64,000 nt of DNA from Hyphomonadaceae bacterium (GTDB taxonomy: Bacteria > Pseudomonadota > Alphaproteobacteria > Caulobacterales > Aquidulcibacteraceae), in contig JAHDXR010000008.1 of the NCBI GenBank assembly GCA_023384105.1, positions 34,682 through 98,681 of the forward strand. Direction: 5' to 3'. The notes under the pieces are model-generated. The model was not told where the DNA came from. It made no database searches and was given only the letters and a program-made list of their open reading frames with translations. Position 1 is the stretch's first letter, and the number at the start of each line of letters is the position of its first letter. Below are positions 23,911 through 62,627 of this stretch, piece by piece. Both the position numbers and the translations under genes were made by a program.

Positions 23911-24012
23911 TATGGAGCGCCGGCGCCCTCGCCGGCACGGCGCAACCGCTACCGACACGCGTCGGCGCTTGTTCGATCGGGCGCATGCCGGCGAGGGCGC
24001 CGGCGCTCCGTA
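23911..24012. repeat. Palindromic intergenic repeat, copy A
   Basis: Two 27-bp arms (23911-23937 and 23986-24012) are inverted repeats with one mismatch, starting TATGGAGCGCCGGCG and ending CGCCGGCGCTCCGTA. The 48-bp loop contains its own small stem (CCGAC/GTCGG) and the shared core GTCGGCGCTTGTTCGAT. The same core recurs in copies at 39616-39719 and 58783-58857. It lies 11 bp after the carbonic anhydrase stop. Confidence 0.88.
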
Positions 24013-24098
24013 GGCGCAGTTCTGCGCGACGACGGCGGTTCGGCAAAACGGTCCGGCGGCGCGGTCATTCAAGCGCGCGCGATCTCGCTCTAGCCAGA

Positions 24099-24129
24099 CT
24101 GCGCCGTCTTCTCCCCCGAAACGGCGCAG
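24099..24129 (+). promoter_or_regulatory. Hairpin directly upstream of the OsmC gene
   Basis: CTGCGCCGT and ACGGCGCAG form a perfect 9-bp stem around a 13-base C-rich loop. The hairpin ends two bases before the AGGAAAG ribosome binding site of the OsmC-family gene. It may be a 5' leader structure or a repressor operator. Confidence 0.5.
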
Positions 24130-24146
24130 ACAGGAAAGACGAAACG

Positions 24147-24716
24147 ATGACTACAGCTCCCGCAACGCCCGCGCCGACCATCCTCAACGGCGTCAACGTC
24201 ACCGCGATGTTCGAGACGATCGAAGCGGTCAAAGCCAACGCCGACATCGCCAAGTTCAACTTCCGCGCCAGGAACACGTGGCTCGGCGGCGACTGCAACC
24301 GCACGACGATCAAGGACTTCACCGGCGCGCTGAGCGAACACCGCGCGAGCGCCCAGGCCTTCATCGCCGACAACGGCGAACCGGAGGTGCTGCTGGGCGC
24401 GGACAAGGCGCCCAATCCGGTCGAATGGCTGCTGCACGCGCTGATCGGCTGCATGACGACGACGACGGCCTACCACGCCGCCTCGCGCAACATCGCCGTC
24501 GACGCGATCGACAGCGAGATCGACGGCGATCTCGATCTGCGCGGCTTCCTCGGCCTCAGCCAGGACGTGCGCAACGGCTACCAGGTCATCCGCGTGCGCA
24601 TGCGGGTCAAGACCAAGGCCGCGCCCGAGACGATCGAAGCGCTGACGCTGATGTCGCCGGTCTACGACGTCGTCTCCAAATCCGTGCCGGTCGATCTCTC
24701 GATCGAGACGTACTGA
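24147..24716 (+). CDS. OsmC family protein
   Basis: 189 aa. The OsmC core is present: PNPVEWLLHALIGCMTTTTAYHAA holds the conserved helix with the redox Cys, and the swapped beta strands appear in DAIDSEIDGDLDLRGFLGL and GYQVIRVRMRVKTKAAPE. The first peroxidatic Cys of classical OsmC/Ohr is not at its usual place, so peroxidase activity is uncertain. The C-terminus SPVYDVVSKSVPVDLSIE is typical. AGGAAAG precedes the ATG. Confidence 0.88.
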   Translation: MTTAPATPAPTILNGVNVTAMFETIEAVKANADIAKFNFRARNTWLGGDCNRTTIKDFTGALSEHRASAQAFIADNGEPEVLLGADKAPNPVEWLLHALIGCMTTTTAYHAASRNIAVDAIDSEIDGDLDLRGFLGLSQDVRNGYQVIRVRMRVKTKAAPETIEALTLMSPVYDVVSKSVPVDLSIETY

Positions 24717-24791
24717 GCACGAAGCGGCCCGGCGGACGCTCCATCCTCCCCCGCCCCGCCGGGCCGCGCCCCTCTTGCAGCATCGGACCAC

Positions 24792-24941
24792 ATGATCATG
24801 CCCTCTACGCGCAATCCCCATACGCGCAAGCCGAGCCGCCTGCCCCTCGCCTGTTATGCGGCGGCGTACGCGCTTTCGGTGCTGCTGGCGGCGAGCGTGC
24901 ATTTCGCCGTCGCCGCGCGCGCCATGCTGCTGCCGGCGTGA
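24792..24941 (+). CDS. Possible small single-pass membrane protein (49 aa)
   Basis: A short reading frame with a basic N-terminus (MIMPSTRNPHTRKPSRLP) and one predicted transmembrane helix (LACYAAAYALSVLLAASVHFA). The positive-inside layout supports a real membrane peptide. It lies 75 bp after the OsmC gene on the same strand and ends 7 bp before the convergent AraC gene. No strong ribosome binding site is visible. Family unknown. Confidence 0.4.
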   Translation: MIMPSTRNPHTRKPSRLPLACYAAAYALSVLLAASVHFAVAARAMLLPA

Positions 24942-24948
24942 TGCGATG

Positions 24949-25911
24949 CTAGGCCGCCTGCATCTGCTTGCGGAACGCCGCCGGAGGCTGGCCCATCTCG
25001 CGCCGGAACGCGCGGGTGAACGCCGCCTCCGACTCGTAGCCGACATCGAAGGCGATCTGCGCGATCGTCCGGCGGCTTTCGCGCAGCTTGCCGGCGGCCA
25101 GCTGCATGCGCCAGTTGGTGAGGTAGCGCATCGGCGGCGCGCCGATCAGCTGGGTGAAGCGCTCGGCGAAGGCGGAGCGCGACATGTTCACCGCGCTCGC
25201 CAGCTCTTCGGCTGTCCAAGCCCTGTTCGCCTGCGCATGCAGCAGCGAAAGCGCGCGGCCGATGGCCGGATCGCGCAGGCCCGCGAGCCAGCCTGTCTGC
25301 TCCGGCGGCAGTTCGTTCAAGTGGCGGCGCACGGTCTCGACGAACAGCAGTTCGCTCATTTTCGACATCACCGTCGCCGCGCCCGGATCGCCGTTGGCGA
25401 GATTGCGCGCGGCGTAGATGAAGGAATTCGACAGCCATTCCCCGCCCGGCACGTCGCCGACGCGAATGACGATCAGCGGCGGCAGGTTGGCCAGCAGCAA
25501 GCCGAGTTCCGGGCCGCCGCCGAGAAAGCCGCACACCAGCCGTGTCAGACTTCCGCCGCCGCCATGCACGACGCGCGAAAGCCCAACGCCGTTGAGCGGC
25601 GGCTGCACCAGGCCCGCCGCGTTGACCGGCGCGGCGTCGGGCGCGCTGCCGAAGATATGCACGTCGTTGTGCGGGATCAGCACGACTTCGCCGGCCTTGA
25701 GCCGCACGCCCTCGCCGCGTTCGAGGCGGAGATCGAAACCGCCCTCGATCACGTAGTGGAACGCCACCACGTGCGCCGGCGCCGGCATGAACGGACGGCA
25801 GAATTCCGGATCGACCTTGCCGGCGATCAGCCACGGATCGCTGAGTTCGGCGTCGACGAACACGCCGCCGGTCAGGCCGACAACACGCAGAACATCCGAG
25901 AGCGCGTCCAT
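24949..25911 (-). CDS. AraC-family transcriptional regulator with cupin sensor domain
   Basis: 320 aa from ATG 25911 (MDALSDVLRVVGLTGGVFVD). The N-terminal cupin domain contains VVAFHYVIEGGFDLRLERGE and LKAGEVVLIPHNDVHIFGS. The C-terminal double helix-turn-helix has AEELASAVNMSRSAFAERFT and AQIAFDVGYESEAAFTRAFR, ending GQPPAAFRKQ. This is the AraC/cupin_6 type. It diverges from the diiron protein gene, 95 bp apart, which is therefore a likely target. Confidence 0.92.
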   Translation of the reverse strand: MDALSDVLRVVGLTGGVFVDAELSDPWLIAGKVDPEFCRPFMPAPAHVVAFHYVIEGGFDLRLERGEGVRLKAGEVVLIPHNDVHIFGSAPDAAPVNAAGLVQPPLNGVGLSRVVHGGGGSLTRLVCGFLGGGPELGLLLANLPPLIVIRVGDVPGGEWLSNSFIYAARNLANGDPGAATVMSKMSELLFVETVRRHLNELPPEQTGWLAGLRDPAIGRALSLLHAQANRAWTAEELASAVNMSRSAFAERFTQLIGAPPMRYLTNWRMQLAAGKLRESRRTIAQIAFDVGYESEAAFTRAFRREMGQPPAAFRKQMQAA

Positions 25912-26006
25912 GCCGGCATAGGCCGCCCGTGCGCGTCTCCGGTCAAGAGGTCCGGCGCTTCGGGTGCGCCGCACGTCACACTCCAGCCTCCCCGGGAGAC
26001 CTTTCC

Positions 26007-26918
26007 ATGACCTACCAGTACACGTTCAAAGACTGCCTCCAGCGCGCCGAACGCATCACCTGGCGCGTCGAAGACCTGATCGGCGGCGACAAGACGCTGG
26101 ATTTCGCCCGGCCGTTCCTGCCCGAGACGTTCGCCCGCACCGAGCCGCTCGATTTCCTCGGCGCCGACGAAAAGCTCACGCTGAACCAGATCCGCGGCCA
26201 CGCCTATCTCGCCATGTTCGGCCTGGTGGAGGAATTCATCCTGCCGTTCGTACTCGATCACGCGCGCTCGGTGATCAATGGCGACGACTATCGCGCCCGC
26301 GCGTTTCTCGAGTTCGCCAGCGAAGAGGCCAAGCACATCCATCTGTTCCGCCGCTTCCGCGAGGAGTTCCACGCCGGGTTCGGCTCGCCGTGCGACGTGA
26401 TCGGCCCGCCCGAGGCGATCGGCGCGCACGTGCTGGGCCAGCCGCCGCTCGCGGTGGCGCTGCTGACGCTGCAGATCGAGTGGATGACGCAGGCGCATTT
26501 CCTCGGCAGCGTGAAGGACGACCAGGCGCTCGATCCGCAGTTCAAGAGCCTGCTGCTGCACCACTGGATGGAGGAGCATCAGCATGCGCAGCTCGACGCG
26601 CTGATGACGCTCTCGATCGCCGAGACCCTCGACCAGGCCGGGATCGACGCCGGCATCGACGCCTATGTCGGCCTCGCCGGCTTCTTCGACAGCGGTCTGA
26701 AGCAGCAGGCCAGGTTCGATCTCGAAGCGCTGCAGCGCGCGATCGGGCGCAGCTTCAGCGCGGCCGAGTGCGAGAGCTTCCTGCGCCAGCAGCACCAGGC
26801 CAATCGCTGGACCTATCTGGGCTCCGGCATGACGCACCCGCGCTTTCTCGGCACGCTCGGCGCGCTCAACGCCGAAAAGCGCGCCGCCGTCGAAGCGATG
26901 GCGCCGGCCTACTCGTGA
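26007..26918 (+). CDS. Ferritin-like diiron protein
   Basis: 303 aa, largely helical. Two metal-binding signatures are visible: EFASEEAKHIHLFRRF (E-x-x-x-H type) and HHWMEEHQHAQLDALM (E-x-x-H), with other candidate Glu in the helix GLVEEFILPF and in QIEWMTQAHF. This fits diiron ferritin-like enzymes such as AurF-type N-oxygenases or related oxidases, but the reaction cannot be assigned. GGGAG lies upstream. Divergent from an AraC regulator, suggesting inducible expression. Confidence 0.7.
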   Translation: MTYQYTFKDCLQRAERITWRVEDLIGGDKTLDFARPFLPETFARTEPLDFLGADEKLTLNQIRGHAYLAMFGLVEEFILPFVLDHARSVINGDDYRARAFLEFASEEAKHIHLFRRFREEFHAGFGSPCDVIGPPEAIGAHVLGQPPLAVALLTLQIEWMTQAHFLGSVKDDQALDPQFKSLLLHHWMEEHQHAQLDALMTLSIAETLDQAGIDAGIDAYVGLAGFFDSGLKQQARFDLEALQRAIGRSFSAAECESFLRQQHQANRWTYLGSGMTHPRFLGTLGALNAEKRAAVEAMAPAYS

Positions 26919-26978
26919 ACGAAAGCGGCCGGCGCTCCGCCAGCGCCGGCCGTGCGTTCTTCGCGCTTGCGCGCCGGA

Positions 26979-30200: not shown

Positions 30201-30496
30201 CCCGGCTCCGTCCCCTGTTTCGCGCGGGCATGCCAAGGCGCCTCATCGCCTAAAGGCCGCCCCCCGCGCCCAGTTCATCCGGCGCACGGAACGGCCCCAT
30301 ACCTCACCCGCACCCGCCCCCGCTGACGGGCGGCGCTTTGGTTTGGCATGCCGACTTTGCTTAATTTTGTCCAGTGCGCGACGCACGCCGCGAGCCTGCT
30401 CGGCGTGTCAAAAAATCGTGGGGCCAGTTCAGGTTAGGCCGGCCGGACGCGGGCACGGCGCGGGTCGTTGCGCCGCCGTCACACCGATGGCGGGAA
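30201..30496. other. Intergenic region between autotransporter and diguanylate cyclase genes
   Basis: About 296 bp lie between the autotransporter start and the end of the CHASE4-GGDEF-EAL gene. It contains the autotransporter promoter region, with an AT-richer patch (about 30340-30370), and the 3' tail of the signalling gene. No gene, perfect palindrome or sigma-54 promoter was recognised. Confidence 0.6.
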
Positions 30497-32833
30497 TTAT
30501 GTCCGCCGTTGCGCGCGCAGATCGGCCACGGTCGCGATCGCGCCGCTGCGCCCGGCCGCCGGCTCGCCCGCCATTCGCGCGATCAGCGCATCGACCTGAT
30601 CGGCCGGCGTCGCTTGCGAGAAGAAGAACCCTTGCAACTCGGTCACGCCGACCAGGCGCATGACCGAAGCCTCGGCCTCCGTCTCCACGCCCTCGGCGAC
30701 GATGTCCATGCCGAGGCCGCGCCCGAGCGTCACCACCGACTGGATGATGGTCATCGCCCGCTTGCGTTCGTGGATGCCGGTGACGAAGGCGCGGTCGATC
30801 TTGATCTTGTCGAAGCGGAAATCGCACAGATAGCGCAGCGACGAGAAGCCGGTGCCGAAATCGTCGAGCGCGACCTTGAAGCCGAGCCCGCGCACGGTTT
30901 CGAGGATGTGACGGTTGCGGTCCGTCGACTCCATCAGCACGCCTTCGGTGACTTCGAGCACGATCCGGCTCGGGTTGACGTCGTGCTTGGCCAGGAGCCG
31001 CTCCAGCAGCTCGACCAGGTCGACGTGGCGGAACTGCACCGGCGACAGATTGATGGCGAGATCGAGGTTCGGCCAGCGCTTGGCCTCCTCGAACGCGCGC
31101 TCCAGCACGAACGCACCCAGCGCCGGCATCAGCCCCGCCTCCTCCGCGATCGGCACGAACACCGCCGGCGAAATGTCGCCCTTGCCCGGATGCCTCCAGC
31201 GCAGCAGCGCCTCGAGCCCGACCACCTGCCCGGTGGAGCACGAGATCAGCGGCTGGTAGTGCAACTGTAAGCCACCGGCGTCGATCGCCGTGTGGAGTTC
31301 GAGTTCGATCTCGCGGCGCTGTTCGACTTCCGCCGCCATCTCGGCGCAGAACAGCATGGCGCGGTCGCGGCCCTGGTTCTTGCCCTGGTAGAGCGCGATG
31401 TCGGCGTGGCGCATCAGCTCCTGCGGCGAGGCGCCGTGGTCCGGCGCCTGCGCCAGACCGACCGTCGCCGTCATGCGCACATGCTGGCCGTAGACGTCAA
31501 ACGCATCCTCGAACGCGTCGCGCAGCCGCGACGCCAGCTCGGCCTCGGCGTCGTCGCTGCCGGAATGGCGCAGCACGGCGAACTCGTCGCCGCCGAAGCG
31601 GGCGAGGAAATCGTTCGGCCCCAATTGCTGCTGCAGCCGGGTCGCCACCGCCATGATCAGCGCGTCGCCGGCGGCGTGGCCCATCGTGTCGTTGACGTCC
31701 TTGAAGCGGTCGACGTCGATATAGGCCACCACCACGCGGTGGTTGTTACGCGATTGGATGACGCCGTCGAGCGCCTGCTGCAGCCGCTCGACGAAATGGT
31801 GCCGGTTGGGCAGGCCGGAGAGCGCGTCGTGCAGCGCCTGGTGGCGGGATTCCCGCTCGCGGTTGGCAAGCTCGCTCGACGCGCGCTTCAGCCGCCGGAT
31901 CATCACCCAGGTCAGCAGCCCCGCGCCGATGACGCCAAGCACCACCATCGGCAGGATGAACATGAGCAGCGCCTGGCCCGGACGGCGCGGCGTCCAGGTG
32001 AGATAGCCCACCGGCGCGCCGTCGTCGGCGACGAACGCTTCCGAGAGCGCCTGCCGCGACGGGCTGGGCTCGGAGGAAATCGACAAATCGTCGATCAGCA
32101 GCGAACTGCCGACCTGGGCCATGAAGCCCTCGTCGATGCGCACGATGCTGAGCAACAGGTGCGGCTCGCCTTCGAGCAGCTCCGGATAAAGGTTCGGCAC
32201 GATGCTGATGGCGGCGACCACCGCCGGTTCGCCGTCGACGCTCATGATGTGGCCGGCCCACCTGCCGAAGCTGGCCGCCAGCAGCGCACTGTAATTGCCC
32301 TGGCTTTCCGCGAACGCTTGGTCGCGCCGGCGCAAGCCTTCGGCGGCGCCCCCGCGCGCCTCGGCGACGATCTGGTCGAGCACGTCCGAGCGCGCGGCGT
32401 AGGCGGCGATCGGGTTCGTCAGCTCGCCGCCGAGATTGGCGTAAACGGGCCGATTGCGGCCGTCGACGATGAGGACCTCGTCATGGCCGTAGGTCTCGAA
32501 GAAATAGATGCCGACATTGGTCTCGAGCCATTCGGTGTCGACCGGGCGGCGCTGGGCGTGGACCACCGCGTCGTCCCACCAGGCGATCGCCTTCTGCTGG
32601 TCCAGCACCTGGCTCACGCTGCGGTCGAGCGCGTTCTCCACGAGCTGGCGCTCGCGCACGATCGCGGTCCGGTTCGCCGACCAGCCCGCATAGGCGACGA
32701 TCACGAGCAAAAGCGCGCCGAAGATAAGCAGCGCCCCGCCGATCATCGCCGTCAGTCGACTCAAGTCGCTCTTGTAATGATCGTTTCTCGCACCCGCTGC
32801 GATCATAGTATTAAGCCGCTGTAAACTGGTCAC
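30497..32833 (-). CDS. Membrane CHASE4-GGDEF-EAL c-di-GMP protein
   Basis: 778 aa. One transmembrane helix lies at ~28-50 (MIGGALLIFGALLLVIVAYA), a periplasmic CHASE4-type sensor at ~60-255 (with AIAWWDDAVVHAQ), and a second helix at ~290-312. The GGDEF domain has an intact active site (FLARFGGDEFAVL) but no RxxD inhibitory site just upstream. The EAL domain starts GLEALLRWRHPG and has the catalytic-region motifs LAINLSPVQFR, LEVTEGVLME and LDDFGTGFSSLRYL. Both cyclase and phosphodiesterase sites look intact, so the net activity must depend on signal. Confidence 0.93.
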   Translation of the reverse strand: MTSLQRLNTMIAAGARNDHYKSDLSRLTAMIGGALLIFGALLLVIVAYAGWSANRTAIVRERQLVENALDRSVSQVLDQQKAIAWWDDAVVHAQRRPVDTEWLETNVGIYFFETYGHDEVLIVDGRNRPVYANLGGELTNPIAAYAARSDVLDQIVAEARGGAAEGLRRRDQAFAESQGNYSALLAASFGRWAGHIMSVDGEPAVVAAISIVPNLYPELLEGEPHLLLSIVRIDEGFMAQVGSSLLIDDLSISSEPSPSRQALSEAFVADDGAPVGYLTWTPRRPGQALLMFILPMVVLGVIGAGLLTWVMIRRLKRASSELANRERESRHQALHDALSGLPNRHHFVERLQQALDGVIQSRNNHRVVVAYIDVDRFKDVNDTMGHAAGDALIMAVATRLQQQLGPNDFLARFGGDEFAVLRHSGSDDAEAELASRLRDAFEDAFDVYGQHVRMTATVGLAQAPDHGASPQELMRHADIALYQGKNQGRDRAMLFCAEMAAEVEQRREIELELHTAIDAGGLQLHYQPLISCSTGQVVGLEALLRWRHPGKGDISPAVFVPIAEEAGLMPALGAFVLERAFEEAKRWPNLDLAINLSPVQFRHVDLVELLERLLAKHDVNPSRIVLEVTEGVLMESTDRNRHILETVRGLGFKVALDDFGTGFSSLRYLCDFRFDKIKIDRAFVTGIHERKRAMTIIQSVVTLGRGLGMDIVAEGVETEAEASVMRLVGVTELQGFFFSQATPADQVDALIARMAGEPAAGRSGAIATVADLRAQRRT

Positions 32834-33860: not shown

Positions 33861-35686
33861 ACCTGCGCCGCGCTCACGCCGGGCGGCGGATAGACCGGCA
33901 TCACCGCGGCCGCGCCATAGAGATAGCCCTGGGCGTACTCGCAACCCATGGCGCGCAGCGCCTCGGCGGTGGCTTCGTCTTCAACGCCCTCGGCCGTCAC
34001 CTTGAGCCCGAGCGCTTTGCCCAGCCCCACCAGCGCGCCGACGATGGTCGCGTTCTCGCGGTCGCTCAGGATCCGCGCGACGAACGACTGGTCGATCTTC
34101 AATTTGTCGATCGGCAGTTCGCGCAGCAGGAACAGCGATGAATAGCCGGTGCCGAAATCGTCGAGCGCGATCTGCACGCCCTGGTTCTTGAGCGACAGCA
34201 GCGCCGACTTCGCCCGCGCCGTGTCGCCGATCATCGCGCTTTCGGTGACCTCGATCTCGAGCCGCTGCGCCGGGAAGCCGGTCTCGCGCAGCGTGCGCAG
34301 CACCTTCTCCGGGAACCACTGGTCGCGCACCTGGCTCGGCGAGATGTTGACCGCAAGCACGAAGTCGCCCGGCGCATCGAGCGCCTTGCGGCACGCCTGC
34401 GCCAGCAGCGCCCAGAACATCGCGTCGACGAGGCCGGCGTCCTCCGCCACCGGGATGAACGCCGTCGGCGAGATCATGCCGCGTTCGAGATGGGGCCAGC
34501 GGGCCAGCACCTCGAAGCCGGCCAGCTCGCACGTGTCGAGCCGCACCACCGGCTGGAAGTACGGCACGATGTCGCCATTGGGGATCGCCGCGCGCAGTTC
34601 GGTTTCGAGCGCCGCCTTCGACTTGAGCTCCTCGTCGATCGAGGAGTCGAAAAACTTGAACGCGCCGCGCTCTTCCTTGGCGCGCAGCATGGCGGCGTCG
34701 CCGCGCTGCAGCAGGTCGGCTGCGCCGCGTCCGTCTTCCGGACACAGCGCGACGCCGATCGAGGCGCCGACCGTGAGCTTGAGGCCGTTGACCAGGATCG
34801 GCGCGGCAAGCTCGTGCAGAATCCGCCGCGAGGCCGCGGCGATGCCGTCGCGCCCTTCCGGGCCCTCAAGCAGGATGGCGAATTCGTCGCCGCCGAGACG
34901 CGCGGCGAAGCTGTCGTCGCGGATGCAGCCGCGCAGGCGCGTGGCGATCACCTGCAGCAGCTGGTCGCCGATGGCGTGGCCGTGCACGTCGTTGATCGGC
35001 TTGAAGCGGTCGAGGTCGATGAACATCAGCGCGAACGCGCTCTTCTCGTCGCCGACGAGCGAAAGCCGGCGTTCGAGCTCTTCCAGGAAGTGGCGGCGGT
35101 TGGCGAGGCCGGTGAGCGGATCGTGCCGCGCCAGCGACTGCGCCCGCGCCTCGGCGGCTTCGCGTTCGCTGATCTCGGCCGAAAGCGTCTCGTTGGTCTT
35201 GATCAGATCCTGGGTGCGCTCCTGGACGGTGCGCTCGAGGCTGTCGCGGATCGCGTCGAGTTCGAGCACGGCCTTGCGGCGGTCCAGCTGCGCCTTCACC
35301 CGCGCCGTCAGCACGCGCAGGTCGATCGGCTTGGTGATGTAGTCGTTGGCGCCGCCTTCCAGCGCCTTGGAGACGATGTCGCCGTCGTCCAGGGCGGTGA
35401 CGACGATGACGGGCACGTGCTCGGCGTCGAACCGCGCGCGAATGCCGGTGAGCGCATCGGCGCCGGACCGCTCCGGCATCATCCAGTCGAGCAGGACGAG
35501 TTCGATCTTCTCGGCTTCGATGGCGTCTTCGATGCCGACGGCGCTTTCACGCAAAACGACCTCGTAGCCGCGCCGTTCGAGGCGGCGGCCGAGCATGTCG
35601 CGGTTCTGCGCCTGGTCGTCGACCAGGAGAATGCGACCTAGGCGCGTCGCGGTGGACGCGCCGTCTTCGCCTTGCGCCGAGGACAT
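33842..35686 (-). CDS. Response regulator with REC-GGDEF-EAL domains
   Basis: 614 aa from ATG 35686 (GGGGAG upstream). The receiver domain (about 15-135) has LLDWMMPERSG around the phospho-acceptor Asp and a conserved Lys in ANDYITKPIDL. A coiled linker (LERTVQERTQDLIKTNETLS) joins the GGDEF domain (FAARLGGDEFAIL, intact) to the EAL domain, whose signature reads GFEVLARW (EVL variant) with LAVNISPSQVRD, EVTESAMI and LDDFGTGYSSLFLL. It is a cytoplasmic, phosphorylation-controlled c-di-GMP enzyme. It lies 137 bp downstream of the CheY-like gene on the same strand. Confidence 0.93.
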   Translation of the reverse strand: MSSAQGEDGASTATRLGRILLVDDQAQNRDMLGRRLERRGYEVVLRESAVGIEDAIEAEKIELVLLDWMMPERSGADALTGIRARFDAEHVPVIVVTALDDGDIVSKALEGGANDYITKPIDLRVLTARVKAQLDRRKAVLELDAIRDSLERTVQERTQDLIKTNETLSAEISEREAAEARAQSLARHDPLTGLANRRHFLEELERRLSLVGDEKSAFALMFIDLDRFKPINDVHGHAIGDQLLQVIATRLRGCIRDDSFAARLGGDEFAILLEGPEGRDGIAAASRRILHELAAPILVNGLKLTVGASIGVALCPEDGRGAADLLQRGDAAMLRAKEERGAFKFFDSSIDEELKSKAALETELRAAIPNGDIVPYFQPVVRLDTCELAGFEVLARWPHLERGMISPTAFIPVAEDAGLVDAMFWALLAQACRKALDAPGDFVLAVNISPSQVRDQWFPEKVLRTLRETGFPAQRLEIEVTESAMIGDTARAKSALLSLKNQGVQIALDDFGTGYSSLFLLRELPIDKLKIDQSFVARILSDRENATIVGALVGLGKALGLKVTAEGVEDEATAEALRAMGCEYAQGYLYGAAAVMPVYPPPGVSAAQVQAAAL

Positions 35687-36183: not shown

Positions 36184-36190
36184 GTGCGCC

Positions 36191-39615: not shown

Positions 39616-39719
39616 TATGGACCGCCGGCGCCCTCGCCGGCACGTGCAGCGACGGCTACCGACAAGCGTCGGCGCTTGTTCGATAAGGCGCATGCCGGCG
39701 GGGGCGCCGGCGGTCCATA
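39616..39719. repeat. Palindromic intergenic repeat, copy B
   Basis: Two 27-bp arms (39616-39642 and 39693-39719) are inverted repeats with a single mismatch, starting TATGGACCGCCGGCG and ending CGCCGGCGGTCCATA. The 50-bp loop has the core CGTCGGCGCTTGTTCGATAA shared with copy A (one base different) and copy C. The element fills the gap between the TetR stop and the end of the convergent membrane protein gene. Confidence 0.9.
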
Positions 39720-40503: not shown

Positions 40504-42189
40504 ATGACGAACACGACGCCTGATGCCGGCCGCATGCGCGATCCGGGCGCCATGGTGGGCCTGTTGGCTCTCGGCGTGGGCGTTCTCTGGGTGATCGGTT
40601 CGCTCGCGGCCGCATTCGCGCTGCTCGGCGCGGACCGCATCTTCTCGCTCGGCCTGGTCGAAGCGGCCGCGCTCACGGCCGCGGTGATCCTGCCCGCGCT
40701 GATGGCGATCTTCGCCGGCGCCGCCGCGCGCGATAGCGCGCTGGTCCGGTTCGAAGCGCGCCGCCTGGCCGATGCGGCCGACCGGCTGCTCAATCCCGAG
40801 CGCAGCGCCGAGGACGCGGCGCGCCAGCTGGCGACGACGGTGCGCGGCGAGATCGGCGCGCTCGACACGGCGCTCGAACACACGCTGGCGCGGCTGCGGG
40901 AGGTCGAAGGCCAGATCGCGCGCCAGACGCAGTCGGTCGACGCCATGGCCGACAAGGCCAAGGGCGGCGCCGGCGCGATGATCACCGGCATGGAGCGCGA
41001 ACGCGAAGAGCTGATGCGCATTTCGCAAGAGCTCACCGGCCAGGCGCAGACGATCGGCGCCGCCATCAGCCGTCACACCCAGTCGATCTCGGAAGCGGCC
41101 AAGCTCGCCGAAGCCGAAGTGCGCGCCGCCGACCAGGCGCTCGATCACCGTCTCAGTTCGTTCGGCGCCGCCGCCGCGCTGATCAGCGACCGCACGCACG
41201 GCCTCTCGACCGCCGCGCAAGCCAGCGCCGATTCCGCGCTGCGGCTCGAACAGGCGCTGTCCAACGCGCTCGACGTGCTGGCGAAAGCCACGAACCTCAC
41301 CGACGCTGCGCGCCAGTCCGCCGACGCGGCGACGCTGGCCGCCAACTCCACCGCCGGCGCCGTGCGCGAAACCACCAGCCGCGCCATCGACGACGCCAAG
41401 CGCGCCGCCGATCTGATCCGCGGCGAGGCGGTCAATGTCGAACGCGAAGCCGCGCTGGCGCTGGAGCGGCTGCGCGATGCGGCGGATGCGGCGCGCGCCG
41501 CGGCGATGGGCGCGCGCGACGCCATCGAAGATACAGCGCCGGCGCCGCGCCGCACGCGCGGGCCGCGCGAAGACTACGATGCATCCTGGCGCAACGAGCC
41601 CGATCCGCTCGAACAGCCGCAGCCGCGCCGCGCCGCGCGCGATGGGTACGAGGAGCGCCCCGCCGCGCCGCAGCCCGCGCGCAGCCTGCGCGGCGAGCGC
41701 GCCGAGCGTTCCGCCGGCGCCGACTGGACCTGGCGCGAACTGCTCTCGAACGTCGACGAGGACGGCCGCGCCGCAGCGCCCGCGCCGGCGCCGCCGCAAC
41801 GGCGCGAGCCGGCGGACGATCCGGTCGCGCATTTGCGCCGGCGCATTTCCGATCCGCGCCCGGCCGCGCCGTCGCTGCCGATCGTGGAAACCATCGCCCA
41901 CGCCGGGCTCGATCTCGACACGGTGTTCTCGCCCTCCGGCCTCGAACGCATCGCCCAGCGCGCACGCTCGGGCACGCAGGCGCGCCGGCGCGCGGTCCAT
42001 GACGCGGCGCCGGACGCGGCGCGGCGGCTGGCCGAGCATCTGGCGCACGATCCGGTCGCCAATCAGGACGCGATGCAATTTCTGCGCAGCGAAGGCGCGC
42101 GCATCGCCGAACTGATCTCGCGCGGCCGCGCCTCGATGAACGCCGAAGCCACGCGCGCCTTTCTGCTGATCGACGCGGCGGCGGGTTAA
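40504..42189 (+). CDS. Coiled-coil membrane protein, TipN-like layout (paralog 1)
   Basis: 561 aa from ATG 40504. Two N-terminal transmembrane helices (AMVGLLALGVGVLWVIGSLA and VEAAALTAAVILPALMAIFA) are followed by a ~270-residue Ala/Glu/Arg-rich coiled coil and an Arg/Pro/Ala-rich linker. The C-terminal helical domain (about 465-561) has GLDLDTVFSPSGLERIAQRA and ends RAFLLIDAAAG. It is a paralog of the next gene. Two helices plus a long coiled coil recalls the Caulobacter new-pole marker TipN, but this identity is inferred from layout only. Confidence 0.75.
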   Translation: MTNTTPDAGRMRDPGAMVGLLALGVGVLWVIGSLAAAFALLGADRIFSLGLVEAAALTAAVILPALMAIFAGAAARDSALVRFEARRLADAADRLLNPERSAEDAARQLATTVRGEIGALDTALEHTLARLREVEGQIARQTQSVDAMADKAKGGAGAMITGMEREREELMRISQELTGQAQTIGAAISRHTQSISEAAKLAEAEVRAADQALDHRLSSFGAAAALISDRTHGLSTAAQASADSALRLEQALSNALDVLAKATNLTDAARQSADAATLAANSTAGAVRETTSRAIDDAKRAADLIRGEAVNVEREAALALERLRDAADAARAAAMGARDAIEDTAPAPRRTRGPREDYDASWRNEPDPLEQPQPRRAARDGYEERPAAPQPARSLRGERAERSAGADWTWRELLSNVDEDGRAAAPAPAPPQRREPADDPVAHLRRRISDPRPAAPSLPIVETIAHAGLDLDTVFSPSGLERIAQRARSGTQARRRAVHDAAPDAARRLAEHLAHDPVANQDAMQFLRSEGARIAELISRGRASMNAEATRAFLLIDAAAG

Positions 42190-42482: not shown

Positions 42483-44327
42483 ATGCACTTCGACCTCAAG
42501 GACGACGAGCGCGAGCGCGACCCGTTCCTGGCGTTCGGCGATCTCGAACCCAGCAACGATCACGCGCCGTTCGATGCGGACCTGGCGTACGACGACGCCT
42601 ACGCCGCTCCGGCGCGGGCGCTTGCGGAGATTCACCCGGAGAAGCCGGTGAAGACGGGCTTCTCCTGGGCCGGCTTCCTGGGCGGGACGACGGCGCTGGT
42701 GTGGATCGTCGGCGCGATCGGCGGGCCGATCTCCTATTTCGGCCCCGACGCGCTGATGACGATGGACCCGGCATTGCAGGCGGGGCTCCTCGCGCTCGCG
42801 TTCGGCCCGGCGCTGCTGTTCTGGATCACCTCCTCCGCCGCGGGCGAGGCGTTCAAGGCGCGCCGCCTCGGCATGCGGCTGGCCAAGCTGGCCGAGCAGA
42901 GCCGCTTCCCGAACGAAGCGGTCGAGCAGGATGCGCGGCGCCTCAGCGAAACGGTGAAGAGCGAGATCGAGTCGCTGAACGATGCGGTGGCTTCGGCGCT
43001 CAACCGCCTGGCGGAACTGGAGCGCAGCGCCCAGCGCAACGCGGCGCTGTTCGGCGACGCCGTCGCCAACGCCCGCATCAACGCCGAGTCGATGACCGAA
43101 ACGCTGCGCCAGGAGCGCGAAGCGATCGCCGACGTCAGCAACGACCTGAAGGGCCAGACCGAAGTCGTCGCGCATTCGATCGGCCGCCAGGTGCGGCTGA
43201 TGCGCGAAGCGTCGAAGCTGGTGAAGACCGAACTCGACTCGGTCAAGGACGCGCTGGAGACCCGGCTCGCCTCGTTCGCCGAGTCCGCCGCCGTGATGAG
43301 CGAGCACACCACCCAATTCCACGTCGTCGCCGACAAGGCCGCGGCCGCGACCTCGCAGCTCAACGGCGCGATGTCGGACATGCTCGACGGCCTCGCCGAA
43401 GCGACGCGGCTCACCGAAACGGCGAAGAAGTCGACCGCCGAAGCGGTGCTGGCGGCCAACGAGACCGCCGGCGCGGTGCGCGAGACCATCCGCGCGGCGG
43501 TGTTCGAAGCCAAGCGCGCCGCACAGCTGATCCGCGCCGAAGCCGCGGCGATGCAGGAAACCGCCGACGGGACGCTGGGCAAGCTGCAGGGCGCGGCCGC
43601 CGCCGCGCGCGACGCTTCGGCCGAAAGCCAAGCCGCCGCCGACCGCTACACGACGCAGATCGAGAAGCGCCTCGGCGCCCTCGCCGCGACGGCAGGCGCC
43701 AGAAAGCCCGCGCCGCAGCCGCGCGCGGCGGAGCGTCCGCCCGCGCGCAGCATCGAACGTCCGGTCGAGCGCGCCGCCGCGCGCGCGCCGGCGCCGGTTG
43801 TCGAAGAGATGAACACGCTGCACGCCGCGGCCCGCGCCGCCGTCGCCCGCGGCGGCGCTCCGCGCGCGGACGCCGAGACGCAGCCGCGCCGCGTGTTCAA
43901 GGGCTTCAGCTCCTGGACCAATTTCATGCCGCCGGCGCCGCGCGAAGAGGAAGCGCCGCCGATCGCCGCCAATGAGGACGATTACCAGCTCGCCTCGTTC
44001 GGCAATGCAGACGACGACCTCAAAGCCGGCGCGATCAATCTGGTGATCGATTCCGGCGTCGACATCGACGAGGTGCTGGGGCCGGTCGATCTCGACCGCA
44101 TCGCCCGCTCGTCGCGCGCCGGGGGCAATGCGCGCCGCCGCGCCGTGCTCGACGCCGCCCCGAACGCGGTGGGCCGCATCGCCCGCCACGTGCGCCGCCA
44201 CGCCTCGGCGCAACACCTGGCGACGCAGTTCCGCGCCCGCCCCGACCTCGCCAAAAGCGAGAACCGGAGCGAAGGTTCGGACCTGGTCCGCGCCTATCTG
44301 CTGATCGACGCGGCGCTCGCTTCGTAG
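42483..44327 (+). CDS. Coiled-coil membrane protein, TipN-like layout (paralog 2)
   Basis: 614 aa. An acidic N-terminal extension (MHFDLKDDERERDPFLAFGD) precedes two transmembrane helices (AGFLGGTTALVWIVGAIGGP and LQAGLLALAFGPALLFWITS), a long coiled coil, a basic disordered linker and a C-terminal domain. Shared segments with paralog 1 include ANxTAGAVRET, AKRAAxLIRxEA, the ARRRAVxDAAPxA motif and the ending RAYLLIDAALA. GGGAG lies upstream. The 293-bp gap between the paralogs has no visible gene. Probable envelope-anchored scaffold; function inferred. Confidence 0.78.
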   Translation: MHFDLKDDERERDPFLAFGDLEPSNDHAPFDADLAYDDAYAAPARALAEIHPEKPVKTGFSWAGFLGGTTALVWIVGAIGGPISYFGPDALMTMDPALQAGLLALAFGPALLFWITSSAAGEAFKARRLGMRLAKLAEQSRFPNEAVEQDARRLSETVKSEIESLNDAVASALNRLAELERSAQRNAALFGDAVANARINAESMTETLRQEREAIADVSNDLKGQTEVVAHSIGRQVRLMREASKLVKTELDSVKDALETRLASFAESAAVMSEHTTQFHVVADKAAAATSQLNGAMSDMLDGLAEATRLTETAKKSTAEAVLAANETAGAVRETIRAAVFEAKRAAQLIRAEAAAMQETADGTLGKLQGAAAAARDASAESQAAADRYTTQIEKRLGALAATAGARKPAPQPRAAERPPARSIERPVERAAARAPAPVVEEMNTLHAAARAAVARGGAPRADAETQPRRVFKGFSSWTNFMPPAPREEEAPPIAANEDDYQLASFGNADDDLKAGAINLVIDSGVDIDEVLGPVDLDRIARSSRAGGNARRRAVLDAAPNAVGRIARHVRRHASAQHLATQFRARPDLAKSENRSEGSDLVRAYLLIDAALAS

Positions 44328-50439: not shown

Positions 50440-50442
50440 CGC

Positions 50443-50469: not shown

Positions 50470-50487
50470 GATCGAGGGAGGGGGACG

Positions 50488-50895: not shown

Positions 50896-50923
50896 CCCCT
50901 CCCCCGCTTTGCGGGGCGAGGGG
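50896..50923. terminator. G/C hairpin between DUF559 gene and rodA
   Basis: CCCCTCCCCCGC and GCGGGGCGAGGGG pair around a TTT loop with one bulged C. It lies between the convergent DUF559 and rodA stop codons and could end transcription from both sides. Confidence 0.55.
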
Positions 50924-50929
50924 AAAGGC

Positions 50930-55717: not shown

Positions 55718-55817
55718 CTACGCCGCCTCTTTCAAACCGCGCGCCCTGCACGGGACGCGCGCGCGATGCTTGCCTCTACCGTGACGCGACCGATTCCGCA
55801 CGTGCGCGCCGCAGCGT

Positions 55818-57223
<1,406 letters not shown>

Positions 57224-58777: not shown

Positions 58778-58782
58778 AGCGG

Positions 58783-58857
58783 CGCAGCGCCTGCTACCGG
58801 CAAACGTCGGCGCTTGTTCGATAAGGCGCATGCCGGCGAGGACGCCGGCGCTCCATA
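58783..58857. repeat. Palindromic intergenic repeat, copy C (left arm missing)
   Basis: The core (CGTCGGCGCTTGTTCGATAA) and right arm (58831-58857, ending CGCCGGCGCTCCATA) match copies A and B. The left arm is absent; the element begins about 5 bp after the protease stop codon, as if inserted at or truncated by the end of the gene. Confidence 0.85.
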
Positions 58858-58876
58858 GGGGCGCGCAGCGCGCCGA

Positions 58877-60175
58877 TCAGGGCGCGTTGGGCGCGACGCG
58901 CCAGACGATGTTTCCGACATCGTCGGCCACCAGCAGCGCGCCGGTGCGATCCATTGCAACGCCGACGGGGCGGCCCTGCGCCTCTCCGCGCGCGTTGAGG
59001 AAGCCGGTGAGGAAATCCTGCGCATCGCCGCTGGGACGGCCGTCGGCGAACGGGACGAACACGACCTTGTAGCCCACGCGCACGCTGCGGTTCCAGGAGC
59101 CGTGCTGGCCGATGAAGGCGCCGCCGCGATAGCGCTCCGGCAATGCCTCGCCGCGATAGAACATGAGGCCGAGCGACGCCGTGTGTGCGCCGAGCGCATA
59201 GTCGGGAGCGAGCGGCGCCTGCAGGCGGACGTTGGCGGGAATCTCCACGCGCTCGTCGCGGTGCTCGCCGAAATAATAATAGGGCCAGCCGTAGAAGGCG
59301 CCGTCCTGCACGCTAGTCATGTAGTCGGGCACGAGATTGTCGCCGAGCATGTCGCGCTCGTTGACCACGGTCCACAGCGCGTTCGCGCCGGGCGCCCAGT
59401 CCATGCCGACCGGATTGCGCAGGCCGGACGCAAACACGCGCGCGTCCGAACCGTCCGGGTTCATCTCCCATATCGCGGCGCGGCCCTGTTCGATCTCCAT
59501 GCCGTGGTCAGCGATGTTGGTGGCGGAGCCGACGGCGACGTAAATCTTCGAGCCGTCCGGCGCGGCGAGCAGGTTGCGCGTCCAATGGCCGTTGTCGCCT
59601 TCGCGGTACGGCAGTCGCAGCACGGTTTCGCCCGCGCCTTCCAGGCGCGTCGCGCCTTCGGCATAGGGAAAGCGCACCACCGCATCGGTGTTGCCGACGT
59701 AGAAATAGCCGCCGACCAGCGCCATCCCGAACGGCTGGTTCAGGTTCTCGGCGAACACGTGCTGCTCGTCGACATCGCCGTCGCGGTCGCTGTCGCGCAG
59801 CAGCGTGATGCGGTCGGCGCTGTCATGGAAGGCGCCGGCGCGGCGCTGGACGCTGTTGCGGATCCAGCCCATCAGGCCGCCGCCCGCCTGCGGCCGCGTC
59901 GCGCTCTCGGCCGCCAGCACGTCGCCGTTCGGCAGCACGTAGATCCAGCGCGGATGGGCGAGGCCTTCGGCGTAGCGCGTGACGGTGAAGCCTTCGGGCG
60001 CGATCGGCGCCGCGCCATCGGGCCAGCCGACGGCGGTGGCTGGATTGACGGTCGGCAAGCCGCCGCCGGCCGGCGGCGGCAAGTGCGGGTTGGGTCCGAA
60101 CGTTCCCTCGGGAGACGGCGCGTCGGCGCAGGCGGCGAGCAGCAGAAGAGCGGCGAGAACACGGGCGGGCTTCAT
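58877..60175 (-). CDS. PQQ-dependent sugar (sorbosone-type) dehydrogenase lipoprotein
   Basis: 432 aa. Lipoprotein signal MKPARVLAALLLLAAC. The six-bladed propeller follows the glucose/sorbosone dehydrogenase family: FTVTRYAEGLAHPRWIYVLP, LNQPFGMALVGGYFYVGNTD, VYVAVGSATN-like segment KIYVAVGSATNIADHG, GLRNPVGMDWAPGANALWTV and AFIGQHGSWNRS. It would oxidise a sugar or sugar-like compound in the periplasm. PQQ biosynthesis genes are not in the window. It lies 9 bp after the VTT-protein gene. Confidence 0.9.
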   Translation of the reverse strand: MKPARVLAALLLLAACADAPSPEGTFGPNPHLPPPAGGGLPTVNPATAVGWPDGAAPIAPEGFTVTRYAEGLAHPRWIYVLPNGDVLAAESATRPQAGGGLMGWIRNSVQRRAGAFHDSADRITLLRDSDRDGDVDEQHVFAENLNQPFGMALVGGYFYVGNTDAVVRFPYAEGATRLEGAGETVLRLPYREGDNGHWTRNLLAAPDGSKIYVAVGSATNIADHGMEIEQGRAAIWEMNPDGSDARVFASGLRNPVGMDWAPGANALWTVVNERDMLGDNLVPDYMTSVQDGAFYGWPYYYFGEHRDERVEIPANVRLQAPLAPDYALGAHTASLGLMFYRGEALPERYRGGAFIGQHGSWNRSVRVGYKVVFVPFADGRPSGDAQDFLTGFLNARGEAQGRPVGVAMDRTGALLVADDVGNIVWRVAPNAP

Positions 60176-60184
60176 GCCCGCAGT

Positions 60185-60970
60185 CTAGCGCGGCGCGTCG
60201 GCGTCGTCGCGCCCTTCCGGATCGGCCGGCGGGATTTGCGGACGCAGCCACTTGCGCACCACCACCGCGACCACGATCCAGAGCGCGATCGCGATCACGC
60301 CCATCAAAGCGGCGGAACCGAGATTGCCCTCGAGCGCGTCCATGATGCCGTCGCCGGCGAAGGCGATGATCGCGGTCTTCGGCAGCACGCCCAGCGCCAG
60401 ACCGGCGAGGAACGGCCAGAAGTTCACCCGCGCGGCGCCGAACGCCATGTTGACGACGATGAACGGCGCGGTCGGCACGAAGCGCACGATCAGGCTGGCG
60501 AGAAACGCGTTCTTGCCCATGAAGCGGGTGAAGCGTCCGCCGGTGGCGCCGCCGAAGCGCTTCTGCGTCTCGGCGCTGGAGAGACGGCCGGTGAAATAGG
60601 TCGCCGCGCCGGAGACCATGGTCGCGATCCAGGCGTACCAGAACCCCTGTTCCGGGCCGAACGCCACCACGCAGGCGCCGATCAGCACGATCTGCGGCGC
60701 GCCGACATAGGCCGTCAGGGTGAAGACGAGGACGGTGGCGAGAAGCCCCCAGTGGCCGCGCCGGGCCTCGCCCAGCGTGGAGTCGATGAACGCCTCGATC
60801 TCCTCGCCATAAAACAGCCGGCCGACCACCAGCATGGCGCCGACCACGACCACCATGGCGACCGAAATCGCCACCGCCCGCCAGGCGCGCGCGTCCATGT
60901 TGTTGGCGAAATCCGCGAGCTTGGCGAACAGGCCAGGCGGCGGCTGTCGGGGCTCGGCGGGGGTGCTCAT
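60185..60970 (-). CDS. TVP38/TMEM64 (VTT/DedA-like) membrane protein
   Basis: 261 aa, multi-pass. The VTT-domain pattern is clear: TAYVGAPQIVLIGACVVAFG, MVSGAATYFTGRLSSAETQK and FLASLIVRFVPTAPFIVVNM followed by AFGAARVNFWPFLAGLALGV. Such proteins are linked to lipid scrambling or transport. It precedes the sugar dehydrogenase gene in a probable two-gene operon. Confidence 0.88.
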   Translation of the reverse strand: MSTPAEPRQPPPGLFAKLADFANNMDARAWRAVAISVAMVVVVGAMLVVGRLFYGEEIEAFIDSTLGEARRGHWGLLATVLVFTLTAYVGAPQIVLIGACVVAFGPEQGFWYAWIATMVSGAATYFTGRLSSAETQKRFGGATGGRFTRFMGKNAFLASLIVRFVPTAPFIVVNMAFGAARVNFWPFLAGLALGVLPKTAIIAFAGDGIMDALEGNLGSAALMGVIAIALWIVVAVVVRKWLRPQIPPADPEGRDDADAPR

Positions 60971-61011
60971 CGGCCCTGGCTGTCGCGCGCCGGGCTCAGC
61001 CGGTCAAGCGC

Positions 61012-61449
61012 TCACGCCGCGCGCTGCGCACGCCGGCCCAGCAATGCGCTCATGTCGAAAGCGTGGTTGGCGGCGGCGTTCCGCTTGGGGGACGGAGCCT
61101 CGGCCCGCGGAATCTCCATGTCGTTCATGCGCGGCTTGAGACTCCGGATCAGGTCCGCCTCGATGCGGCGGCGGTCGGCCTCGTCGCGGATCGGGCCGAG
61201 CACGTAGCGTTCGGTGGCGCCGTAATACCAGTAGGCGCGGCCCCATTTCTCGTGCCCGAGCAGGCGCGAGCGCAGATCGTGGGCTTTGCCGACATAGAGC
61301 ACTTCGAGGAAGAACGCCCAGCGGCGGCGCACGAAGATATAGATGCCGCCCTGACCCGCCTGGGGCAGGCCCTTCTTGGTCAGGACGCACTTGAACCGAT
61401 AGCGCCGGCGGCTTTCGCCGCGCCAGGAATGCGACCCGAAGAAGAACAT
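61012..61449 (-). CDS. GIY-YIG nuclease-family protein
   Basis: 145 aa from ATG 61449 (MFFFGSHSWRGESRRR). The catalytic domain is recognisable as GGIYIFVRRRW and FLEVLYVGKAHDLRSRLLGH (GIY and YVG strands with the conserved Arg), followed by E in RRRIEADLIRSLKPRMND. Stand-alone GIY-YIG proteins of this size are common and mostly uncharacterised. Divergent from the 2OG oxygenase, 102 bp apart. Confidence 0.85.
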   Translation of the reverse strand: MFFFGSHSWRGESRRRYRFKCVLTKKGLPQAGQGGIYIFVRRRWAFFLEVLYVGKAHDLRSRLLGHEKWGRAYWYYGATERYVLGPIRDEADRRRIEADLIRSLKPRMNDMEIPRAEAPSPKRNAAANHAFDMSALLGRRAQRAA

Positions 61450-61551
61450 GAGCAAGGCTCCCTTGGCTTGAGGCGGAAGCTCGGCGGCGAATCGTAAATG
61501 CGCCGTTAAGACATTGCGCCCGGTTCGTGGCGGGGCGAACATCGCGACTCG

Positions 61552-62490
61552 ATGGTTCTCGACGCCCTGCCCGCCCTGTCGATGCGCGAACGCCGCGCCG
61601 ATCCGCAAGGGTTCGCCCGCGCCATGGGCGAGAGCTATACCCGCTTCGGCTTCGCGGTGGTGCGCGATCACGGTCTCGACAGCGCAACGATCGAGCGCGC
61701 GCTGGCGGCGGCGAGGGACTTCTTCGCGCTGCCGGAGGCGGTGAAGCGGCGCTATCACCTCGCCGGCGGCGCGGGGCAGCGCGGCTACGTGCCGTTCGGC
61801 GTCGAAGCGGCGAAGGGCGCGGCGAAGGTCGATCTGAAGGAGTTCTGGCACGTCGGCCGCGAACTGCCGGAGGGACATCGCTACCGGCCGTTCATGCCGC
61901 ACAATCTGTGGCCGGCGGAGCTGCCCTCCTTCCGCGCCGACGTGTACGCGCTCTACGCCGCGCTCGATGCGCTGGGCGGGGCGCTGTTGCAATCGATCGC
62001 GCTCTATCTCGGCCTGCGGCCGGCGTTCTTCGCCGCCGCCACGCGCGACGGCAATTCGGTGCTGCGCCTGCTGCACTATCCGCCGACGCCGCCCGATCCC
62101 GACGGCGTGCGCGCGGAAGCGCACGAGGACATCAACGTCATCACGCTGCTGCTCGGTGCCGAAGAAGCGGGCCTGCAGCTGCTGACGCGCGAGGACCGGT
62201 GGCTCGACGTCAATCCGCCGGACGGGGCGCTGGTCGTGAATGTCGGCGACATGCTCCAGCGGCTGACCAACCACGTGCTGCCCTCGACCACGCACCGCGT
62301 CGTCAATCCGGCGCCGGAGCGCGCGCACCTGCCGCGCTACTCGATCCCGTTCTTCCTGCACTTCGCGCCGGACTATCTGATCGAGACCCTGCCCGGCTGC
62401 GTCACGCCGGACACTCCGAACCGCTATCCCGAACCGATCACGGCGCAGGATTTCCTGTTCGAGCGGCTGCGGGAGATCAGGCTGGCTTAG
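61552..62490 (+). CDS. 2OG-Fe(II) oxygenase, isopenicillin N synthase-like
   Basis: 312 aa. The N-terminal DIOX_N part is RYGFAVVRDHGL-like (TRFGFAVVRDHGLDSATIE). The iron ligands are the HxD of AEAHEDINVITLLLGAEE and the distal His of STTHRVVNP, and the 2-oxoglutarate-binding Arg-x-Ser is in PRYSIPFFLHF. It is a non-heme dioxygenase of this superfamily; the substrate is unknown. Confidence 0.92.
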   Translation: MVLDALPALSMRERRADPQGFARAMGESYTRFGFAVVRDHGLDSATIERALAAARDFFALPEAVKRRYHLAGGAGQRGYVPFGVEAAKGAAKVDLKEFWHVGRELPEGHRYRPFMPHNLWPAELPSFRADVYALYAALDALGGALLQSIALYLGLRPAFFAAATRDGNSVLRLLHYPPTPPDPDGVRAEAHEDINVITLLLGAEEAGLQLLTREDRWLDVNPPDGALVVNVGDMLQRLTNHVLPSTTHRVVNPAPERAHLPRYSIPFFLHFAPDYLIETLPGCVTPDTPNRYPEPITAQDFLFERLREIRLA

Positions 62491-62548
62491 CGCGGCGCGC
62501 GGCCGCCTTCGACAAGCTCAGGCGCCGCCCGGGCGCGACACGGCGTAG

Positions 62549-62627
62549 TATGGACCGCCGGCGTCCCGCCGGCATGCGCCAACTTCTGCAAGCATTGCGC
62601 AGGCCGGCGGGACGCCGGCGGTCCATA
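62549..62627. repeat. Palindromic intergenic repeat, copy D (short loop)
   Basis: Arms 62549-62579 and 62597-62627 (31 bp each) are inverted repeats with one mismatch, starting TATGGACCGCCGGCGTCCCG. The loop is only 17 bp and lacks the core of copies A-C, so it is a second subtype. It lies between the convergent oxygenase and SDR genes. Confidence 0.9.

What the first reader, a model, noticed from the sequence alone, without database searches (positions are those of the whole stretch)
23911..62627. Family of palindromic intergenic elements (three full, three partial copies)
Copies at 23911-24012, 39616-39719 and 62549-62627 are full palindromes with 27-31 bp arms. Partial copies lie at 58783-58857, 14686-14714 and 1-11. 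All are intergenic and mostly at gene 3' ends. Three share the loop core GTCGGCGCTTGTTCGAT, so there are at least two subtypes. The density (six in 64 kb) suggests a REPIN- or MITE-like family mobilised by a transposase elsewhere.
Basis: seen in the sequence. Interest (0 to 1): 0.75.

Follow-up and report, generated by a model that had tools for sequence, protein, structure and literature searches.

The report
REPIN repeats with an unusual tag
The palindromes are copies of a small mobile DNA repeat (a REPIN) that has spread to many gene ends in this bacterium, and its likely mover is a single-strand transposase whose gene is, in relatives, bracketed by the same repeat; the kind is known, but the short tag at its ends is not the usual one.

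Summary
The window's palindromes belong to a genome-wide family: 219 exact arms (TATGGANCGCCGGCG) in the 3.67 Mb genome, 0 in a reversed-pattern control. Each arm is a single-strand tag (TATGGACC/TATGGAGC) plus a 7-bp hairpin. In an 855-kb sample 25 of 27 close arm pairs point head-out (REPINs); 0 of 46 intergenic elements lie between divergent genes; target duplications do not exceed chance. The same sites lack arms in 12 of 12, 25 of 25 and 3 of 3 congeners with the gene end. The genome's one detected REP-associated tyrosine transposase (RAYT) is flanked by REPINs of the same hairpin but tag CCCGGACC. In congener G003 two RAYTs are bracketed by TATG-tagged arms with loops CCCT and TCC, the main arm forms of the window. 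So: a REPIN/RAYT system in an unnamed genus near Hyphomonadaceae. The twist is the tag: it keeps the GGAGC core of Xanthomonad/Pseudomonad REPs but not GT[AG]G or CGTC; the three bases before GGA vary between lineages, while both arms of a copy agree more than chance. RAYT relatives in several phyla have arms of this layout. No TATG-flanked RAYT was found here, so the present mover is unproven.

The parts
23911..24012 (.). Full REPIN, loop type A; arms TATGGAGC-GCCGGCG-CCCT-CGCCGGC, right tag TACGGAGC; no arm at the site in 3 of 3 congeners with the gene end
39616..39719 (.). Full REPIN, loop type A; arms TATGGACC-GCCGGCG-CCCT/CCCC-CGCCGGC; no arm at the site in 12 of 12 congeners with the gene end
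62549..62627 (.). Full REPIN, 79 bp, arms TATGGACC-GCCGGCG-TCC-CGCCGGC; no arm behind the gene in 25 of 25 congeners with the gene end
58783..58857 (.). Truncated REPIN, loop type A, left arm missing, right arm TATGGAGC-GCCGGCG-TCCT-CGCCGGC on the - strand
14686..14714 (-). Single REP arm, TATGGACC-GCCGGCG-TCC-CGCCGGC
1..11 (-). End of a REP arm cut by a run of N just upstream of the window; not assessable

Best explanation
These are REPINs: pairs of inverted REP hairpins, non-autonomous elements copied by a RAYT, an HUH single-strand transposase of the Y1 type. The arm gives an 8-nt single-stranded foot (TATGGACC or TATGGAGC) and a 7-bp hairpin with a 3-4 nt loop (shown by folding). The enzyme most likely recognises hairpin plus foot on single-stranded DNA, cuts at the foot, and joins a copy elsewhere without target duplication (inferred from the E. 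coli enzyme as described in print and from the missing duplications). Copies survive mainly behind stop codons, most simply because insertions in genes or promoters are lost (inferred). In this RAYT clade the gene itself often sits between two inverted arms (shown), so a REPIN looks like a transposase unit without its gene (inferred). Fused short copies are deletion products (inferred).
For: 219 exact arms, control 0. Close arms head-out in 25 of 27 pairs, five of them short or fused forms under 50 bp. 46 of 47 elements intergenic; 29 convergent, 17 tandem, 0 divergent; against intergenic base shares p = 4e-7 and 3e-6. No target duplication beyond chance in 38 REPINs. No arm at the site in 12 of 12, 25 of 25 and 3 of 3 congeners with the gene end. 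Arm number 0-219 among the 30 genomes of the genus, 1 match in the other 31 genomes searched. Own RAYT: NF047646 98.4 bits, bracketed by REPINs with the same hairpin, one of four arms varying by a base in the stem. G003 RAYTs bracketed by TATG arms with loop CCCT (L037) and TCC (L062). H96-V97-H98 and Y156 invariant in 16 aligned RAYTs (that these are the catalytic HUH and tyrosine is inferred); best solved match is E. coli TnpA-REP 4er8, E 9e-9. RAYT-bracketing arms: 51 of 100 upstream, 59 of 100 downstream, 40 both; controls further out 2 of 93 and 0 of 94; same stem both sides in 35 of 40, with 24 distinct upstream stems.
Against: The only RAYT found in this genome is flanked by tag CCCG, which has 6 genome-wide matches (control 1), three of them the RAYT's own arms, not TATG. 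G021, one contig, has 59 TATG arms and neither a RAYT nor any Y1 transposase hit. RAYT hits and TATG arms correlate only weakly over 30 genomes (rho 0.31, p 0.09; for TTGG arms rho 0.49, p 0.007). No transposition was observed. Congeners are only 68-85% identical beside the sites, so exact insertion junctions cannot be read; at 62549 the next gene lies elsewhere in many of them, so absence there may partly reflect rearrangement.
Confidence: 0.87

Rival explanations
1. A MITE family of a classical DDE insertion sequence whose terminal inverted repeats are the arms.
For: Long inverted ends, sizes near 100 bp, dispersed copies.
Against: No target duplication beyond chance: 28 of 38 show no match, 8 one base, 2 two bases (shuffled 31.2, 5.0, 1.7). 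Each arm is itself a hairpin. In 854,898 bp only one head-out pair of exact arms 250-3000 bp apart was found; it encloses two predicted genes, not identified. The rest of the genome was not checked for this.
Confidence: 0.04
2. Host-encoded 3'-end hairpins (terminators or transcript stabilisers) that arose in place and only look alike.
For: Position just behind stop codons and strong hairpins.
Against: About 100-bp bodies, loop included, matching at 87-95% between different sites of the genome; no arm at the same sites in congeners; only 1 of 38 REPINs has TTTT within 10 nt on either strand.
Confidence: 0.04
3. A variant of the best explanation, not excluding it: an orphan, no longer moving REPIN population, whose TATG-specific RAYT was lost and on which the remaining CCCG RAYT does not act.
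For: Own RAYT has tag CCCG; TATG-flanked RAYTs with this stem were seen only in G003, G012 and G013 (by eye; in G013 only the downstream side is held); G000, G005, G007 and G021 have 59-219 TATG arms without one, and G021 has no Y1 transposase hit at all.
Against: Stem and loop of own RAYT's arms equal type A copies, so cross-action is possible; a run of N beside REP arms shows gaps that could hide a RAYT in this genome.
Confidence: 0.45

Closest known systems
REPINs and RAYTs of Pseudomonas and Xanthomonas (PMC3116915 and PMC2817692, passages seen)
   Same: Inverted REP pairs, high copy number, a dedicated RAYT next to REPs. Pseudomonad and Xanthomonad REPs such as GTAGGAGCGCGCTCGCGCGCGA share GGAGC followed by a short-loop hairpin.
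   Different: Here the bases before GGA are mostly TAT (also CAT, TCT, CTT, CCC in the genome or genus) instead of GTA/GTG. Many RAYT genes of this clade lie between two inverted arms within 150 bp; that was not compared with Pseudomonas here.
TIRtrons/TIRYTs (PMC3733652, section 16 read, other passages seen)
   Same: Transposase gene bracketed by inverted repeats that also occur as repeats in the genome, often as dimers.
   Different: The motif reported as shared by some TIRs is GGGGWSAS; here it is GGA[C/G/A]C plus a 7-bp hairpin, which behaves as a REP.
CGTC-tagged REPs, most in Alphaproteobacteria (PMC3733652, passages seen)
   Same: Tagged REPs in the same class of bacteria.
   Different: Those are reported to lack an associated transposase gene; no CGTC-tagged hairpin was found at any of 100 RAYT loci here.

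Membership tests
REPIN (REP doublet) | Short palindromic hairpin repeated at high copy number | tested here: met
   219 exact arms, control 0; hairpin folds
REPIN (REP doublet) | Two REPs in inverted orientation, tags outward | tested here: met
   25 of 27 close pairs in an 854,898-bp sample
REPIN (REP doublet) | Extragenic | tested here: met
   46 of 47 elements in the sample (home-made gene finder)
REPIN (REP doublet) | RAYT gene flanked by the same REP | tested here: met
   Met in congener G003 (L037, L062); in the own genome the hairpin matches, the tag differs
REPIN (REP doublet) | Copied by RAYT | not testable with these tools
   No strain series or assay
GTAG/GTGG REP superfamily | GT[AG]G at the hairpin foot | tested here: not met
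   The foot in the window is TATGGASC. GTAG core 0 of 100 RAYT loci in a short-stem search that would miss long bulged REPs; GTGG was not run as a core
CGTC REP superfamily | CGTC at the hairpin foot | tested here: not met
   Foot is TATGGASC; CGTC core 0 of 100 RAYT loci
RAYT (NF047646) | Curated model score and HUH plus tyrosine | tested here: met
   98.4 bits over 80; HVH and Y156 invariant in 16
RAYT published groups or subclasses | Placement in a named group | not tested
   Reference sequences of the groups are not held
Classical MITE | Target-site duplication | tested here: not met
   38 REPINs, none beyond chance
TIRtron | Transposase gene bracketed by inverted repeats | tested here: met
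   74 of 120 loci (duplicates included) score 20 or more against 9 of 357 mismatched flanks
TIRtron | GGGGWSAS motif in many TIRs | tested here: inconclusive
   Arms read GGA[C/G/A]C plus hairpin; GGGGWSAS was judged by eye, not searched for

The most novel reading that the evidence does not exclude
A third REP tag class, GGA[C/G/A]C with a free trinucleotide before it, marks a RAYT clade found in many phyla in which the transposase gene is itself the loop of a giant REPIN; the trinucleotide drifts between lineages and is changed in concert on both arms, so the foot is read by a rule other than fixed recognition of GTAG, and REPIN populations outlive or switch their enzymes.
Probability: 0.4. 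Interest if true: 0.65.

Novelty: new variant of a known kind. Interest (0 to 1): 0.45.

Why it matters
It gives a RAYT clade with a clear physical link between enzyme and repeat (arms at the edges of the gene) and a natural series of changed feet on a constant hairpin. That makes the question of how RAYTs read their tag, and whether enzyme and repeat co-evolve, directly testable. It also shows repeat populations whose enzyme carries another tag or is not found, which bears on how long such populations persist without their mover.

Tried and rejected
Rfam on the window gave only a tRNA. Loose matching (3 mismatches) in the window was little better than chance and was dropped. A hypothesis that REPINs insert into existing inverted repeats failed: flank complementarity 3.13 against 3.23 shuffled. 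A terminator role was set aside for lack of T runs. The idea that one residue near the RAYT's tag-contact site tracks the tag did not hold by eye (contact residues from PMC6006769) and was not tested formally. Literature: REPIN+RAYT+Alphaproteobacteria, 0 papers; repetitive extragenic palindromic+RAYT+Caulobacter, 0; REPIN+alphaproteobacteria as whole words, 3 papers, community surveys by title and abstract. Searches (9, 9 and 10 papers, all listed; 577 papers hold two of the terms, 10 listed) showed no title on this genus. The library lacks most subscription papers; the 2017 RAYT classification cited by PMC6006769 was not's list. So absence from print is not shown.

Papers: PMC3733652 section 16 read plus passages; PMC8266576 outline with abstract, sections 10 and 29; PMC6006769 section 12 with its sub-sections read plus passages; PMC8049555, PMC3116915, PMC2817692 and PMC12306157 passages only; others seen in search listings only.

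Dropped rows and choices: the 80 REPIN loci were picked by me, nearly all from the capped match lists (likeness to two window copies), with one, from G018, taken; 19 of 80 had no two readable arms and were left out of the tag test. In one search, 14 of 125 RAYT loci were set aside as duplicates, 13 by equal contig length; the 14th, L069, was dropped without a twin being identified; others lacked 150 bp on a side, leaving 100. One search kept duplicates. One search kept the best 80 of 553 relatives. At 62549, 25 of the 29 loci given held the gene end. Which genomes carry TTGG- or TATG-flanked RAYTs was judged by eye before the one-sided tests. One search used a narrower arm pattern; one search repeated it with the wider one and a positive control, same result.
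Full report
Observation. The three full copies have arms of 29, 32 and 33 bp with 2-3 mismatches and fold into single long hairpins with z-scores of -7.9, -8.8 and -12.4. An arm on its own folds into an 8-nt foot and a 7-bp hairpin with loop TCC or CCCT (the arm alone is less exceptional, z about -2). In the genome (3,665,001 bases, 28 contigs) TATGGANCGCCGGCG occurs 111 times forward and 108 times reverse, and 0 times read backwards. The window has 7 exact arms. The fragment at 1-11 borders a run of N and cannot be assessed.

Anatomy. In 854,898 bp of the own genome (window plus stretches), 72 exact arms were found, and consecutive arms within 250 bp are head-out in 25 of 27 cases. Allowing up to two mismatches in one arm gave 38 paired and 9 single elements. 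A search for GGA[C/G/A]C plus a 7-bp hairpin gave 113 hits, 90 with stem GCCGGCG; three other cores gave 4-9 hits. The three bases before GGASCGCCGGCG were TAT 71 times, CAT 14, CTT 7, others fewer.

Position. 46 of the 47 elements are intergenic: 29 between convergent genes, 17 between tandem genes, 0 between divergent genes. Against the share of intergenic bases the p values are 4e-7 (convergent) and 3e-6 (divergent). The gene finder was home-made and calls only 74% of one contig coding, so the shares are approximate. The five assessable window copies start 1-58 bp behind a stop. The flanks show no target duplication beyond shuffles.

Distribution. Of 61 genomes (own plus 60 relatives), 24 have a match: 23 of the 30 genomes of the genus, with 1 to 219 matches each, and one genome of another family with a single match; the reversed control gave 1 match in one genome (G010) and none in the other 60. 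Three sites were compared with congeners. No arm follows the gene end in 12 of 12 congeners at 39616, 25 of 25 at 62549 and 3 of 3 at 23911. The same script finds both arms at each site in the window. At 39616 several congeners run from one gene end into the next with almost nothing between.

The enzyme. One Y1 transposase was found in the genome, a RAYT by NCBI's model. REPINs lie 11 bp or less from its start and stop; three of their four arms read CCCGGACC, one CTCGGACC with a base change in the stem. CCCGGANCGCCGGCG has 6 matches in the genome, control 1, and three of the six are these arms. In G003, RAYT L037 lies between single arms TATGGAGC-GCCGGCG-CCCT and RAYT L062 between full REPINs TATGGACC-GCCGGCG-TCC, the main arm forms of the window. 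RAYT loci from named genomes put the genus among Alphaproteobacteria: contigs of the same length as those of G001, G007 and G010 are titled Alphaproteobacteria bacterium, Hyphomonadaceae bacterium and Hyphomonadaceae bacterium, all metagenome-assembled.

Tag behaviour. REPIN bodies of type A and related bodies occur across the genus with different feet: in the copies fetched, TAT throughout in G021 (9 copies), TCT throughout in G011 (4), mixed in G003. In the 61 of 80 fetched loci with two readable arms, both feet agree in 43, against 30 expected by shuffling within genomes (1 of 2000 shuffles as high). Genomes judged to have a TTGG-flanked RAYT have more TTGG arms (6 against 24 genomes, one-sided p 0.002); for TATG the test is weak (3 against 27, p 0.035), and four genomes (G000, G005, G007, G021) have 59-219 TATG arms without such a RAYT. 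Number of RAYT hits correlates with TTGG arms (rho 0.49, p 0.007) and only weakly with TATG arms (rho 0.31, p 0.09). G021, a single contig of 97% completeness, has no Y1 transposase hit by Pfam, NCBIfam or protein search; the Pfam search also found none in seven other congeners tested.

Wider clade. Among 100 non-duplicate RAYT loci, 51 have an arm of the GGANC layout within 150 bp upstream facing the gene, 59 downstream, 40 both; flanks 600 bp further out give 2 of 93 and 0 of 94; two scrambled cores give 0-1 of 100 per side; GTAG and CGTC cores give 0 of 100 in this short-stem search. The stem varies (24 kinds upstream) yet is the same on both sides in 35 of 40, as expected if the hairpin is what the partner enzyme reads. 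Loci with both arms bear titles from Acidobacteria, Verrucomicrobia, Bacteroidales and others; most are metagenome-assembled, so single assignments may be wrong. One hairpin, GGASC-GCGGGCG-TCC-CGCCCGC, was counted in ten of these genomes, some of whose RAYTs have another stem: 149 copies in a Reyranella genome, 44, 38, 23, 23, 8, 5, 5, 2 and 0 in the others, controls 0. More distant RAYTs of the order (31-34% identity) have other flanks, some GTAG-tagged (L059, L060).

Comparison. REPINs are defined as REP doublets forming hairpins; that is met. The GTAG superfamily requires GT[AG]G, which is not met, although Xanthomonad and Pseudomonad REPs such as GTAGGAGC... share the GGAGC part. PMC6006769 reports GT[AG]G REPs near most genes of five RAYT subclasses and notes that 'double foot' REPs can arise by deletion inside an inverted dimer, which fits the 22-48 bp copies here. 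TIRtrons resemble the bracketed genes but were described with other TIRs.

Verdict. A REPIN/RAYT family, ordinary in kind, with an unusual foot and a physically bracketed enzyme gene. What moves the TATG copies in this genome today is open.

Noticed in passing
L034, L035, L036, L037, L039 (RAYT loci of G000, G001, G007, G003, G015): The RAYT sits in one conserved slot between a 117-aa protein gene and a response-regulator gene, but its orientation is reversed in G007 and G015 compared with G000, G001 and G003, as if it flips between its inverted arms.
   Followed up: partly
G000:C11 just upstream of window position 1: A run of N borders the window start and a REP arm precedes the run, so there is a gap at a repeat; such gaps could hide genes.
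   Followed up: no
G000 genome: A second arm population, TTGGANCGCCGGCG, has 41 matches in this genome and up to 65 in congeners.
   Followed up: partly
L059, L060 (G053, G048): More distant RAYTs in the same order are flanked by GTAG-tagged inverted repeats, so RAYTs with different feet coexist in the order.
   Followed up: no
REPIN flanks in G000, against G021: The bases just outside the tag are C-rich in the own genome (C at -1 in 41 of 76 ends) but AA in 13 of 18 ends of the 9 copies fetched from G021; unexplained, may be an extended foot or target preference.
   Followed up: no
window 41241-41429 and 43355-43543; 30772-30883 and 34069-34180: Pairs of diverged direct repeats (70-73% identity), perhaps paralogous genes.
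   Followed up: no
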